From NCBI GenBank assembly GCA_930986645.1, contig CAKNJS010000006.1, positions 1-64,000 on the forward strand: a stretch of 64,000 nt of DNA, in the 5' to 3' direction. Both the position numbers and the translations under genes were made by a program. A model generated the notes under the pieces. It was not told where the DNA came from and searched no databases. It worked only from the letters and a program-made list of their open reading frames with translations. This document shows, piece by piece, positions 3,911 through 18,084 of the stretch (position 1 is the first letter of the stretch; each line of letters starts with the position of its first letter). This DNA comes from an uncultured Lachnoclostridium sp. GTDB lineage: Bacteria > Bacillota > Clostridia > Lachnospirales > Lachnospiraceae.

Positions 3911-4948
3911 TTATAAAACTCTGCTGATCTCTGTTTTCAGATTTACTGTATCGAAACCGGCGCTTTCAAACCACTCAAGGCAGATCTGGGCATATTCTTC
4001 CATCACACTTTTTACTTTCTTATCAGGTTTTTTGTCAAAACCCATATAAAGAATAAAAATCTGCATATACATTGTAAGATAAAATCGCAGATTTGCCTTT
4101 TTTTGTTCCTGTTCCATAATAAAGTTTGCAATCGTTCCGGCACTTATATAATCTCCGTCCGCAAGGCTTAAAAGCATTTTGGCAAACACCGCATCCGGAT
4201 CGCCGTACGTATATGCCAGCTCATCTATTGCCTTGACGGCGGTTTTCCGGTCATTCTTTTTGCCATAGGTTTCCACCTTCTTGCGCAGAATCATCTCCGG
4301 GAATGTTTCAAGGACCAGAGGCATTTTCTCAGCCTCTCTTAAATACTCTTCATTTTTTTCCTGCATTTCCAGCACGGCCAGACTGTCAAGCTGATACTGA
4401 AGATTATCTCTAAACTGTTCCGATATTTCTTTTAAATGATTCTCTATATCCTCATACTGCGCTTTCTCTGCCATGACCAGAAAGAGCAGATGATGCCCCT
4501 GATACTCTTCCGGGAATCTGTCCGCCATTCTGCGCGCCTCCCGTTCTGCCTTGAGCGTCATACCGTGCCTGAGATAAAATAATGCCTGCGCAGAGACAGT
4601 GAGTATCTGTTCATTTTGCTCTTTCGACGCACGGACAGCCTGCATATACAGTTTTTCGATGCTTTTGCAGTTTCCTGTTCCCTCTGAATCCCATATTCTG
4701 GCACAGGCTGCAGCCATATTCAGATACACGGCATATGTACTGTAACCTGCGGCCTGCGCTTCTTCATAATACTTGCGCGCCGTTTCATATTCTCCTGTAA
4801 ACAGTGCGATATTCCCCAGATCAAACGCCGCTCTTCCGTCCGTTTTGTCTTCCCTGACAATCTCTCCTAATATTACCGCAGCCCCATGGTAATCTCCCTG
4901 CCGGATCATAAGCTCTGCCTGTTCAATCCGTTCTTTTGGTTCGCTCAT
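3911..4948 (-). CDS. TPR-repeat protein, last gene of the T7SS-like operon
   Basis: TPR-like repeats (GDYHGAAVILGEI..., GEYETARKYYEEAQAAG); starts 23 nt after the preceding gene ends. Confidence 0.7.
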   Translation of the reverse strand: MSEPKERIEQAELMIRQGDYHGAAVILGEIVREDKTDGRAAFDLGNIALFTGEYETARKYYEEAQAAGYSTYAVYLNMAAACARIWDSEGTGNCKSIEKLYMQAVRASKEQNEQILTVSAQALFYLRHGMTLKAEREARRMADRFPEEYQGHHLLFLVMAEKAQYEDIENHLKEISEQFRDNLQYQLDSLAVLEMQEKNEEYLREAEKMPLVLETFPEMILRKKVETYGKKNDRKTAVKAIDELAYTYGDPDAVFAKMLLSLADGDYISAGTIANFIMEQEQKKANLRFYLTMYMQIFILYMGFDKKPDKKVKSVMEEYAQICLEWFESAGFDTVNLKTEISRVL

Positions 4949-4970
4949 ACACTCTCCCTGCCTTTATCTG

Positions 4971-6206
4971 TTAATTAACAGCAACATACTCCATATCGCC
5001 CAGATCCTTTATTGTATCCCATTTCTTCGCGGCAAAACCGCCCGCTGAACTTTTCTTAAACATTTCCCCGCCCACACTTTTCTCCGGGTCTGCCGCTGCC
5101 ATTCCATAGTCCAGCAGAGTATTAAAATTAGAATACAGATTCTTATTTTTTTCAAACCCCTTATACATGTCGTTATACCGTTTCCATTTGGCTTTTCTCA
5201 TGTATTTCGGGCGTTCCAGATCATCCGGTGTAAGCTTTGTCTCAAATCCCAATTCCGAACCGATTGTATGTACGATATTGCCTTTCGTAAAGTTTTCTTT
5301 CTTAAATGTATCTCTCAGCCCTTTTGCACCTTCATATACCTGATACATACTGTTTACATCATCCAGAACTCCGCTTCCCTCAGCCAGACCTCCATAGACT
5401 TTTTTCTCCCATGTACCGGATTGTGCAAGGCTTTCAAATTCTCCGGTCAGTCCGTCTCTTGAATTCAGAGATTCCGACTCTTCCAAGGCTTTCTCTCTTA
5501 CTTTATTCTTGTTTTTTCCCGACATGCTTCCGATTCCGAGTCCAAGGCCGACAGCAAAAAGTGCGGCCCCCTTCTGGCCGGTTGAAAACACCGAATTGAT
5601 CAAATCCCATTCAGCCGACAGAACTCCTGCGGGATTTCCTGAAAGAACGCTGCTTATCATCTTACCGGGCATGGCAAGTATATTTCCCGCGAACTCACCG
5701 AGAGCAGACACGCCTCCCCTCAAAGCCTCCATAGCGGCACGTTTCTCACTGTATGTCAGTTCTTTTTCATACGTCTCTGCCATCTTTCCCCGTACCGCTT
5801 CTATCTCTTTGTTAATCTCCTTACATGACTTACGGATCCCGGAGGCGGAAGTGATAGAGAATCCCGGATTAATCTGATCCCGCAGGATATGTACCTTGCT
5901 GATCCAGCTGTCCAGACCGGAAACAGCTTCTTCGAATTGTTCCTTATATTTTGAATCGACAGAATAGACATCTTCAAAAATCTGGTCAATTTCTTTCTTA
6001 GTCATGTTGTTCATATCAAGCATCTTTTTATGATAAGCGCCGATATTATCCATATAATTATTGATATCCAGTATCCCGATCCATCTGCTGAATCTTGTCC
6101 CCAGATCGCCCAGTCCATCGGTCAGCCAGCACAGTGTCTCGCTGTTTATCTCATCGATCTGCTTTTTTAACTTTTCTTTTCTCTCCTCTGAAAAATCACG
6201 TATCAT
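4971..6206 (-). CDS. 411-aa putative T7SS substrate/associated protein (helical N-terminus, Gly-rich hydrophobic centre)
   Basis: Start at MIRDFSEERKEKL behind RBS GGCGGGG; hydrophobic stretch GMGVS..GNILAMPGKMISSVLSG / GAALFAVGLGLGIGSM; position directly after the small WXG-type genes. Confidence 0.5.
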   Translation of the reverse strand: MIRDFSEERKEKLKKQIDEINSETLCWLTDGLGDLGTRFSRWIGILDINNYMDNIGAYHKKMLDMNNMTKKEIDQIFEDVYSVDSKYKEQFEEAVSGLDSWISKVHILRDQINPGFSITSASGIRKSCKEINKEIEAVRGKMAETYEKELTYSEKRAAMEALRGGVSALGEFAGNILAMPGKMISSVLSGNPAGVLSAEWDLINSVFSTGQKGAALFAVGLGLGIGSMSGKNKNKVREKALEESESLNSRDGLTGEFESLAQSGTWEKKVYGGLAEGSGVLDDVNSMYQVYEGAKGLRDTFKKENFTKGNIVHTIGSELGFETKLTPDDLERPKYMRKAKWKRYNDMYKGFEKNKNLYSNFNTLLDYGMAAADPEKSVGGEMFKKSSAGGFAAKKWDTIKDLGDMEYVAVN

Positions 6207-6222
6207 ACACTGTTCCCCGCCT

Positions 6223-16054: not shown

Positions 16055-17101
16055 TCACAGAAGCAGATAAGCCAGATTCTTCATGCCTTCACTTTTCTCC
16101 AGCTCTTCCAGTGTTACTCTGCCGGTGATTTTTCCGATATAAGCCGAGATGTGTCTCCCGCTGTTATTTTTCTTCTCGATGGCATTCTCCTGAGTCTGGT
16201 CATAGCAGCTGCATACAAACATATATTTTTCTTTATCGCTGCAGTCTATATTCTGCTCCAGAATTTTTGTCTTCTCTACGGATATTTCATCCTGACGCAT
16301 GATGATCAAAACACGGTCGCTCTGGGCAATCAAAGCCGAAACAGGCATACTGCACACATTCTCCGTATCCGCCACTATATAATCATAGTCACCGGATTCT
16401 TTTGCCTGTTCTGCCAGTTTTCTGTATGTCTCAGCAGATATCTGCAGCAGATCCGCCGCTGCCGGAAGCGGCGGCAGAAATGAAAATCCTCCTTCTGTAC
16501 GGATAAATCCCCTCACTGCTCCGTACAGATTCGCCCCTGCCTGACGCATCAGACGGCAGGCCTCAGTATCCAGACACACCCGGTCATTCAGATAATAATG
16601 GAAATACTGCATAGACTCGCAATTCAGATAAAGGACTCTCTTGCGGCGTTCCGCCAAAGATCTGCACAGTCCCAGAGAAACTGTCGTCACTCCCGCTCCT
16701 CCGGAAGCAGAACAAACTGTCACAATCTTTGGCTGACCGCTCAAATACCCTGATTCTGTTTTTTGAAGTTTCAGATCATAGGAAGATTCATTTACAATAT
16801 CTCTCAGGTTGGAATATTTATCCACATATACCGTTCCATTAATATGAGCAGACGATTTACTATCCTCGCCTAATATGACAATTCTGCCGATATCGTGTTT
16901 TTTCAACTCATCGGTATAAAGTTCCTCGCATACTGCCAGTACATCCGCCTCCTGCTGTGATGAAAAAAAGGATGCAAAATATACAGGATCTGTAATTACT
17001 TCCATTTCGATCTGAGAACCGAACCGTTCTATATATTTAATCTCCAGCGCTTCCAGATATCCGTAATCAGTATCCGCAAGAATAATAACCGGTTTTTTCA
17101 T
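16055..17101 (-). CDS. CpaE/TadZ-like MinD-superfamily ATPase with N-terminal receiver-like domain
   Basis: Receiver-like N-terminus, then KIVTVCSASGGAGVTTVSLGLCRSLAERRKRVLYLN (deviant Walker A lacking lysines); start at MKKPVIILADTD behind AGGAGGAG. Confidence 0.75.
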   Translation of the reverse strand: MKKPVIILADTDYGYLEALEIKYIERFGSQIEMEVITDPVYFASFFSSQQEADVLAVCEELYTDELKKHDIGRIVILGEDSKSSAHINGTVYVDKYSNLRDIVNESSYDLKLQKTESGYLSGQPKIVTVCSASGGAGVTTVSLGLCRSLAERRKRVLYLNCESMQYFHYYLNDRVCLDTEACRLMRQAGANLYGAVRGFIRTEGGFSFLPPLPAAADLLQISAETYRKLAEQAKESGDYDYIVADTENVCSMPVSALIAQSDRVLIIMRQDEISVEKTKILEQNIDCSDKEKYMFVCSCYDQTQENAIEKKNNSGRHISAYIGKITGRVTLEELEKSEGMKNLAYLLL

Positions 17102-17127
17102 AGGCATCTCTCCTCCTGACGTCCCTG

Positions 17128-18084
17128 TCATTCCTTAAATTCCACAAGAAAAGAACTATCTGCAAGCTTCAGAATATCTCCCTGATGCAGCAGACTCTGC
17201 TCACCTGCTTTGAGCATTATACCATTTATATATGTACCGTTGCGGCTCTGCATGTCCTCAGCATAATACTGCTCATTTCTGTGCCATATTGTGCAGTGTA
17301 CATTTCCCACCCGCAGGTTTCCGCTTATCTGTCCATCCGCACGATAAGGGCTTCTGCCGAGGATAAACTTTTCGTCCGTAATCGTAAATTCCAGATTCTG
17401 ATCCGCTCCCATATACCGCAGGTTCAGCTTCCGGCCGCTTTGCCGCAGTGCTTCCGGCTGCTTAACCATCTGTTCTTCTTTCAGATCATCCGTTCTGAGT
17501 TTTTCTTTCTGGAGATTTCTTGCATCCCGGAATCTTTTACCGATATCTTCAAGAGACCGGTCTGTCTCTTGAAGTGCAGATAAAAACTGAGCGATCTTCT
17601 TTCCCGGCGGACAAGAAATATGCCTGCTCCATTCCATAATCCTGTTTCGGAGCGCTGTGTCAAGCTCAAACCATTCTGTCCGTTCATATTCTTCACTGAG
17701 CGGGAGATAGACGAGATAAACTTCCTTTGTTATATGATCGATAAATATACTGTTATCTGTAAGATCCAGACAGCCCGCCCGGACGAATAAATTATCTTTA
17801 AGATTCATAACGGCACTGATAAGACCTGTCATGACCGCAATAAATTCCTCTTCGCCAAATGTAGAAAGTATTTTGGGCAAGCGCCTGTATTCACCGGAAA
17901 GATATACAAATTTCCGATATCCGTTAAACCTGATCTGGGTACACGGAAGAAAACTTCTGCAGCTGCCTGACTGGAGCATTTTATATCCGGTTTGGGAATA
18001 GAAGCGATCTTCTTTCAGAAGATACGACACATAGCCGTCCCCTTCCCTTTTTTCGATTATGCCGTTCTCTTTCATCGTTTCCAT
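17128..18084 (-). CDS. FHA-domain protein with DUF6382-like N-terminal domain
   Basis: C-terminal FHA (FILGRSPYRADG...VHCTI...DMQSRNGTYINGI...HQGDILKLADSSFLVEF). Confidence 0.88.
   Translation of the reverse strand: METMKENGIIEKREGDGYVSYLLKEDRFYSQTGYKMLQSGSCRSFLPCTQIRFNGYRKFVYLSGEYRRLPKILSTFGEEEFIAVMTGLISAVMNLKDNLFVRAGCLDLTDNSIFIDHITKEVYLVYLPLSEEYERTEWFELDTALRNRIMEWSRHISCPPGKKIAQFLSALQETDRSLEDIGKRFRDARNLQKEKLRTDDLKEEQMVKQPEALRQSGRKLNLRYMGADQNLEFTITDEKFILGRSPYRADGQISGNLRVGNVHCTIWHRNEQYYAEDMQSRNGTYINGIMLKAGEQSLLHQGDILKLADSSFLVEFKE

What the first reader, a model, noticed from the sequence alone, without database searches (positions are those of the whole stretch)
3911..18084. No recognisable EssA, EssB or EsaA; the transmembrane kinase may take EssB's place
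Seen: no ORF in the operon looks like EssA, EssB/YukC or the multi-TM EsaA/YueB. The kinase has a cytoplasmic kinase domain, one TM segment (about 14547-14600) and an extracytoplasmic TPR/MORN-like region. Known: EssB/YukC has a pseudokinase-like cytoplasmic domain, one TM helix and an extracytoplasmic helical domain. Inference: the active kinase could be a functional counterpart of EssB, which would make this a minimal T7SS variant.
Basis: partly seen in the sequence, partly recalled or inferred. Interest (0 to 1): 0.8.

Follow-up and report, generated by a model that had tools for sequence, protein, structure and literature searches.

The report
Kinase-bearing T7SS lacking EssB

Summary
The operon J-V-D-F-B-C-A + cargo (18084→3911) encodes EssC, YukD, WXG100, a transmembrane Ser/Thr kinase and PP2C, but no EssA/EssB/EsaA, and EssB was not found elsewhere in the 89%-complete genome. 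The one EsaA-like hit is a YhgE/Pip protein on another contig. Genomes carrying this EssC clade lack EssB (0 of 10); EssB-type relatives have it (6 of 6). T7SS variants without these proteins, some with a kinase of EssB-like topology, are already published (T7SSc-j, Garrett 2024), so the general idea is not new. The kinase-for-EssB reading is only partly supported. The kinase shares EssB's topology, but it is catalytically intact, its kinase domain barely matches EssB's, and it is absent from about half the clade's loci. The better counterpart is J (17128-18084, DUF6382+FHA). Its N-terminal domain is predicted, without templates, to adopt a degenerate kinase fold. Its profile matches EssB's pseudokinase domain (59-95% probability depending on alignment; 100 shuffles at most 0.9%), and it is present in 11 of 13 clade loci. 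I propose that J docks on EssC as EssB's pseudokinase does, while the kinase D, with its EEKTVG repeats, adds a membrane sensor and regulation. The DUF6382-EssB link seems undescribed.

The parts
17128..18084 (-). J: DUF6382 + FHA protein (TsxJ type, 318 aa, no TM); proposed counterpart of EssB's pseudokinase domain
   Evidence: Pfam DUF6382 42 bits and FHA 47 bits; AlphaFold2 model; HHalign to EssB pseudokinase; present in 11 of 13 clade loci
17530..18060 (-). DUF6382 domain: predicted minimal pseudokinase fold (b-b-aC-b-b-hinge-aD-aE-b-b-aF order)
   Evidence: DSSP order in the template-free model; Foldseek viral library returns protein kinases
17134..17430 (-). FHA domain of J
   Evidence: PF00498; Foldseek PDB top hits are FHA domains, TM-score up to 0.91 by target
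16055..17131 (-). V: MinD/ParA-like ATPase (TsfV / TadZ type)
   Evidence: PF13614, PF07015; follows J in all 11 J-carrying clade loci
13461..15998 (-). D: transmembrane Ser/Thr kinase (TsxD type, 845 aa)
   Evidence: PF00069 143 bits, DnaJ_C, TPR, weak MORN; catalytic motifs intact; AlphaFold2 model
15117..15950 (-). active kinase domain of D
14936..15041 (-). tandem 36-bp repeats coding EEKTVGMDYTEP in D's cytoplasmic linker, candidate phospho-threonine docking sites
   Evidence: TRF 2.9 copies, 90% match; 1-4 copies of EEKTVG/EEKTIG in D homologues of L069 and L088 only
14550..14606 (-). single TM segment of D
   Evidence: best 19-residue hydropathy 2.46
13533..14489 (-). extracytoplasmic TPR (helical) plus beta (MORN-like) region of D
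   Evidence: Pfam TPR_19/TPR_16; model confidence about 85-94 in the TPR part
12548..13429 (-). F: PP2C phosphatase (TsxF); the listed ORF to 13564 probably carries a spurious N-terminal extension, as homologues are 279-287 aa
   Evidence: NF033484 186 bits (below its 230 cut-off), PF13672; homologue lengths
12298..12564 (-). B: YukD-like ubiquitin-fold protein
   Evidence: PF08817 34.9 bits
7772..12283 (-). C: EssC ATPase; N-terminal FHA region about 11654-12283 is the proposed docking surface for J
   Evidence: TIGR03928 1134.8 bits; EssC tree
7386..7679 (-). A: WXG100 protein (listed ORF runs to 7757; homologues are 97-100 aa)
   Evidence: PF06013 32.8 bits
6830..7303 (-). YwqH-like small helical protein, candidate cargo partner
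   Evidence: PF16888 37.5 bits; conserved in L069, L088
6529..6927 (-). small helical protein, candidate cargo partner (overlaps the previous ORF; true start may lie inside)
   Evidence: conserved in L069, L088, L086
6223..6501 (-). small helical protein, candidate cargo partner
   Evidence: conserved in L069, L088
4971..6206 (-). candidate cargo with N-terminal 'MIRDF' helical targeting-like domain (listed TTG start 6311)
   Evidence: domain family shared with 7 EssC loci, C-terminal on a lipase-like protein in L086
3911..4948 (-). T: cytoplasmic TPR protein
   Evidence: TPR family shared by L055, L056, L058, L069 and the window

Best explanation
The operon is a T7SS of the T7SSf/T7SSj kind that does without the EssA-EssB-EsaA membrane set. 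The step that EssB's pseudokinase performs in T7SSb, binding the N-terminal FHA domains of EssC, is done here by the cytoplasmic protein J. J's DUF6382 domain is an EssB-type pseudokinase, and its own FHA domain is a second, possibly phospho-dependent, handle. The transmembrane kinase D is not the general EssB replacement. It is an accessory membrane sensor/anchor that couples an extracytoplasmic TPR/MORN-like domain to phosphorylation. A likely circuit, inferred: D autophosphorylates the EEKTVG repeats in its linker, J's FHA domain binds them, J bridges D to EssC, and the phosphatase F resets the state. D and J together would then reproduce EssB's layout in two pieces, with D giving the TM and ectodomain and J the pseudokinase. 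Shown: gene content, absence of EssB in clade genomes, profile match, predicted kinase fold of DUF6382, clade-wide presence of J. Inferred: every physical interaction and the phospho-circuit.
For: HHalign, EssB pseudokinase against all J: 95.5%, E 1.4e-8, 164 columns; unrelated families below 1%; active kinase domain 7.5%. Column-shuffled J: at most 0.9% in 100 trials; reversed J 0.1%. The EssB set is genuine: its profile finds YukC 6z0f and 9qks and EssB 4ann, 4ano, 2ynq. The template-free model of J shows kinase-order secondary structure with no beta-3/VAIK strand, and Foldseek against a library with few FHA proteins returns many Ser/Thr kinases. In the EssC tree, EssB loci and J+V loci are each one group, together 98% SH-aLRT, with no locus holding both. 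J is in 11 of 13 clade loci, D in 6. Genomes: EssB 0 of 10 in the J-V clade, 6 of 6 in controls. In B. subtilis the YukC pseudokinase binds YukB FHA domains independently of phosphorylation (PMC9600267). D's EEKTVG repeats vary in copy number but keep the motif in L069 and L088.
Against: The J-EssB match depends on alignment: 59.5%, 74 columns with a different alignment, and 83-88% with T7SS-type J alone. A plain HMMER profile of DUF6382 does not find EssB in the PDB. EssB entries could not be seen in the Foldseek PDB list because FHA hits fill the 50 rows. J's FHA domain in the window clade has G-N-V-H where S-R-x-H is usual, so phospho-threonine binding is uncertain. Two degenerate kinases may look alike without sharing function. 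DUF6382 also occurs in Tad pilus loci, so J is not T7SS-specific. L054 and L070 lack J.
Confidence: 0.55

Rival explanations
1. One reading: the transmembrane kinase D alone replaces EssB as membrane hub, with its kinase domain binding EssC's FHA domains and its TM/ectodomain organising the pore.
For: Same domain order and topology as EssB; EssB TM+ectodomain profile has D's C-terminal half as best non-self match (42%); D is the only membrane protein besides EssC in the operon. The same topological parallel is noted for TscD in PMC11217815.
Against: Kinase domain of D matches EssB's pseudokinase at only 7.5-15.5% and is catalytically intact; D is missing from about half of the clade's loci, two of them with no kinase within 20 kb; D carries DnaJ_C, TPR and beta regions that EssB lacks.
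Confidence: 0.2
2. Nothing replaces EssB: the J-V-B-C-A core is a genuinely simpler machine, and D, F and J only regulate when it is assembled or where it sits, as FHA and kinase components do for type VI secretion.
For: L059 and L067 encode only J, V, B, C, A and cargo in the operon; DUF6382-FHA also occurs at Tad pilus loci, and V is of the MinD/TadZ type, suggesting a shared localisation or regulation module (PMC11217815).
Against: DUF6382 resembles EssB's pseudokinase far more than background and the two are mutually exclusive on the EssC tree.
Confidence: 0.2
3. EssA, EssB and EsaA are encoded in the 11% of the genome not recovered, or are too diverged to detect.
For: Genome is 89% complete in 95 contigs; the EssA HMM misses 5 of 6 positive-control genomes; a YhgE/Pip protein distantly related to EsaA exists.
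Against: Ten other genomes of the clade, most over 95% complete, have no EssB above the cut-off, and 8 of 10 have no EsaA-like hit at all; in EssB genomes these genes sit beside essC.
Confidence: 0.05

Closest known systems
T7SSf (Garrett, Higginson and Palmer 2024, PMC11217815)
   Same: WXG100, YukD-like, EssC with FHA domains, PP2C, DUF6382-FHA protein J and TadZ-like ATPase V; found in Clostridia; no EssA/EssB/EsaA.
   Different: T7SSf is described as having no kinase, and its J has two TM helices; here J has none and a TPR kinase D sits in the operon.
T7SSj (same paper)
   Same: Kinase D with a C-terminal TPR domain, PP2C F, J, B, C, A; EssC clusters near T7SSf and T7SSb.
   Different: T7SSj has the envelope-spanning TsjI and the TM protein TsjK; neither is in this operon. 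T7SSj is not described as having V.
EssB/YukC of T7SSb (PF10140; PDB 6z0f, 9qks, 4ann, 4ano, 2ynq)
   Same: J: pseudokinase-type domain with degenerate catalytic loop. D: one TM and a helical ectodomain.
   Different: J has no TM and has an added FHA domain. D has an active kinase, DnaJ_C, TPR and beta domains. Neither hits PF10140.
TraF of pIP501 T4SS (PMC13037476)
   Same: Another secretion-system protein recently recognised as an EssB/YukC-like pseudokinase, showing that the fold recurs outside T7SSb.
   Different: TraF is a TM protein with EssB layout; J is cytoplasmic and fused to FHA.

Membership tests
T7SSb (EssA/EssB/EssC/EsaA/EsaB/EsxA) | EssC ATPase and WXG100 protein | tested here: met
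   TIGR03928 1134.8 bits, PF06013
T7SSb (EssA/EssB/EssC/EsaA/EsaB/EsxA) | EssB present | tested here: not met
   No PF10140 hit above cut-off in own genome or in 10 clade genomes
T7SSb (EssA/EssB/EssC/EsaA/EsaB/EsxA) | EsaA present | tested here: not met
   Only a YhgE/Pip protein on another contig
T7SSb (EssA/EssB/EssC/EsaA/EsaB/EsxA) | EssA present | tested here: inconclusive
   No hit, but HMM finds only 1 of 6 control genomes; no small TM protein in the operon
EssB/YukC | D (kinase): degenerate catalytic motifs | tested here: not met
   HRDIKPEN, DFG and ALK intact
EssB/YukC | D: cytoplasmic kinase-type domain, one TM, C-terminal ectodomain | tested here: met
EssB/YukC | D: ectodomain homologous to EssB's | tested here: inconclusive
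   HHalign 42%, about 70 columns around the TM and first helices, top non-self but below significance
EssB/YukC | J: EssB-type pseudokinase domain | tested here: inconclusive
   Supported, not proven: 59-95% HHalign, predicted kinase fold
EssB/YukC | J: TM helix and ectodomain | tested here: not met
   No TM; FHA instead
EssB/YukC | Binds EssC FHA domains | not testable with these tools
   No complex prediction available
T7SSf | A, B, C, F, J, V gene set | tested here: met
T7SSf | No kinase; J with two TM helices | tested here: not met
   D present; J has no TM
T7SSf | EssC clusters with named TsfC sequences | not tested
   No named T7SSf EssC was placed in the tree
T7SSj | Kinase D with TPR, plus F and J | tested here: met
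T7SSj | TsjI and TsjK components | tested here: not met
   No large Ig-like or extra TM protein in the operon by ORF lists and hydropathy; rest of the genome not searched for them

The most novel reading that the evidence does not exclude
EssB is a fusion of two modules that stay separate in this lineage: a cytoplasmic DUF6382 pseudokinase (J) that docks on EssC, and a membrane TM-TPR protein (here fused to an active kinase, D). Assembly of the secretion machine is then gated by reversible phosphorylation of D's EEKTVG repeats read by J's FHA domain, where T7SSb uses a constitutive, phosphorylation-independent link. DUF6382 would be the missing evolutionary link between kinases and EssB, shared with Tad pili.
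Probability: 0.25. Interest if true: 0.75.

Novelty: new variant of a known kind. Interest (0 to 1): 0.58.

Why it matters
EssB is the interaction hub of the Bacillota T7SS, yet several T7SS subtypes lack it, and I found no account of what does its job there. If DUF6382 is an EssB-type pseudokinase, every DUF6382-FHA protein annotated as unknown gains a testable role, and T7SS subtypes that seemed to share only EssC, YukD and WXG100 turn out to share a pseudokinase adaptor too. The same domain at Tad pilus loci suggests one adaptor serving two envelope machines. The paired kinase, phosphatase and FHA adaptor would make phosphorylation control of a T7SS directly testable.

Tried and rejected
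Kinase as sole EssB substitute: considered seriously, ranked second on distribution and profile grounds. EsaA-like hit on G000 contig C2: rejected as EsaA, identified as YhgE/Pip, though a functional stand-in is not excluded. Plain HMMER of DUF6382 against the PDB: no EssB hit. Foldseek of J against the PDB: swamped by FHA domains, so EssB rank unknown. Foldseek of D against the PDB: only kinases shown, so uninformative on the ectodomain. The genome-contig scan with J gave only one true relative, an 'uncultured Ruminococcus' contig that appears to be the same as G469 C1; the viral scan gave none. The first extraction of Tad-type J proteins used the wrong strand for some loci; repeated correctly. 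I dropped the claim that J's FHA binds phospho-threonine with confidence, because the Ser-Arg pair is replaced in this clade.
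Full report
What is there. On the minus strand from 18084 to 3911 lies one operon-like run: J (DUF6382+FHA), V (MinD/TadZ-like ATPase), D (kinase), F (PP2C), B (YukD), C (EssC), A (WXG100), then a YwqH-like protein, two small helical proteins, a candidate cargo protein and a TPR protein. Two relatives keep the same order: L069 has the whole set, and L088 (same genus; it appears to be the same contig as L038, CAJFGR010000001) has it as far as the fetched stretch reaches, with three kinases in tandem. Only EssC and D have TM segments. 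No EssA, EssB or EsaA is encoded in the operon.

Is the absence real? The genome is an 89%-complete assembly. EssB and EssA give no credible hit. The single EsaA-like hit is a YhgE/Pip protein on another contig. Ten more genomes carrying the same EssC clade were searched: none has EssB over the cut-off, against six of six genomes with EssB-type EssC, and eight of the ten have no EsaA-like hit at all. The EssA profile is too insensitive to judge by (1 of 6 controls). EssB is rare around here: 1 of 292 sampled genomes of the class and 2 of 300 of the phylum pass the cut-off, although the EssC search turned up several more in the family.

Which protein stands where EssB stands? Three tests speak for J instead. 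First, profile comparison: EssB's pseudokinase domain against 33 family profiles from these loci picks J's DUF6382 domain (95.5%, E 1.4e-8, 164 columns), while the active kinase domain reaches 7.5% and unrelated families stay below 1%. Shuffled columns never exceed 0.9%. The strength varies with the alignment, down to 59.5%, so this is good but not conclusive evidence. The EssB set itself recovers YukC and EssB structures. Second, the template-free model of J (mean pLDDT 79) gives the strand-helix order of a small kinase fold without the beta-3 strand, and in a library poor in FHA proteins its structural neighbours are mostly Ser/Thr kinases. Third, distribution: on the EssC tree the EssB loci and the J+V loci are separate groups that join each other with 98% SH-aLRT; no locus has both. 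J is in 11 of 13 loci of the clade, D in 6, and L059 and L067 have no kinase in the operon at all.

What the kinase does. D is an active-looking kinase whose cytoplasmic linker carries three tandem EEKTVGMDYTEP repeats (14936-15041). Homologues in L069 and L088 keep the EEKTVG/EEKTIG core at 1-4 copies, while more distant T7SS kinases lack it. With an FHA protein (J) and a phosphatase (F) in the same operon, the plain reading is a phospho-threonine docking site. J's FHA in this clade has lost the usual Ser-Arg pair (GNVH for SRxH), so that step is a hypothesis. EssC's own N-terminal FHA domains, read by eye, lack the canonical phospho-threonine residues as in T7SSb, where the YukC pseudokinase binds them independently of phosphorylation (PMC9600267). 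J's pseudokinase could bind them in the same way. D's ectodomain resembles EssB's only weakly (42%).

Known or new? T7SSc-T7SSj were described in 2024 (PMC11217815), including kinases with EssB-like topology, DUF6382-FHA proteins (TseJ, TsfJ), TadZ-like V and PP2C F. This locus combines T7SSf (A, B, C, F, J, V) with the TPR kinase of T7SSj, without TsjI or TsjK, and with a J that has no TM helices. It is best called a kinase-bearing T7SSf-like variant. What I did not find in the library is any statement that DUF6382 is a pseudokinase or related to EssB: the term DUF6382 occurs in one paper, and the T7SSe/T7SSf names appear only there. A 2026 paper shows that another secretion protein, TraF, is an EssB-like pseudokinase (PMC13037476), which makes the reading less exotic.

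Limits. No complexes could be predicted. Only two structure jobs were allowed, so DUF6382 was folded together with its FHA domain. The alignment behind the fold had 14 sequences. Kinase absence in relatives was judged within about 20 kb of essC.

Noticed in passing
L093:5695-6552 (own genome, contig C55): The genome's other DUF6382 protein sits in a Tad pilus locus (two T2SSF proteins, TadE, a type IV prepilin-peptidase-like protein) beside a rhomboid protease. DUF6382 is in 146 of 150 family genomes, so most copies are probably not T7SS parts.
   Followed up: partly
window 14936-15041: 36-bp tandem repeat coding EEKTVGMDYTEP in the kinase linker; copy number differs between close relatives.
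   Followed up: partly
L088:7580-15105 and L038:12096-19621: Three tandem transmembrane kinases of the D type between V and F in a genome of the same genus.
   Followed up: no
window 14685-14915: The kinase carries a DnaJ C-terminal (chaperone substrate-binding) domain between the repeats and the TM segment (PF01556, 36 bits); unexplained.
   Followed up: no
P0014, P0015, P0016, P0017: Proteins of about 480-500 aa matching D's TM-TPR-MORN half with a short cytoplasmic tail and no kinase domain, a possible EssB-like anchor without kinase.
   Followed up: no
window 4971-6206; L086:2124-3662; L070:1263-3089: An 'IRDF' helical domain is N-terminal on this candidate cargo and C-terminal on a lipase-like protein in L086, which looks like a T7SS targeting domain that can sit at either end.
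   Followed up: no
L057:8428-10077: In a related locus the gene before J encodes a probable secreted protease-like ectodomain, a TM helix and a cytoplasmic FHA domain, suggesting that the membrane partner of J differs between loci (read by eye).
   Followed up: no
L099 (own genome, contig C2): A YhgE/Pip membrane protein distantly related to EsaA; a like-sized hit in G469, absent from most clade genomes.
   Followed up: yes
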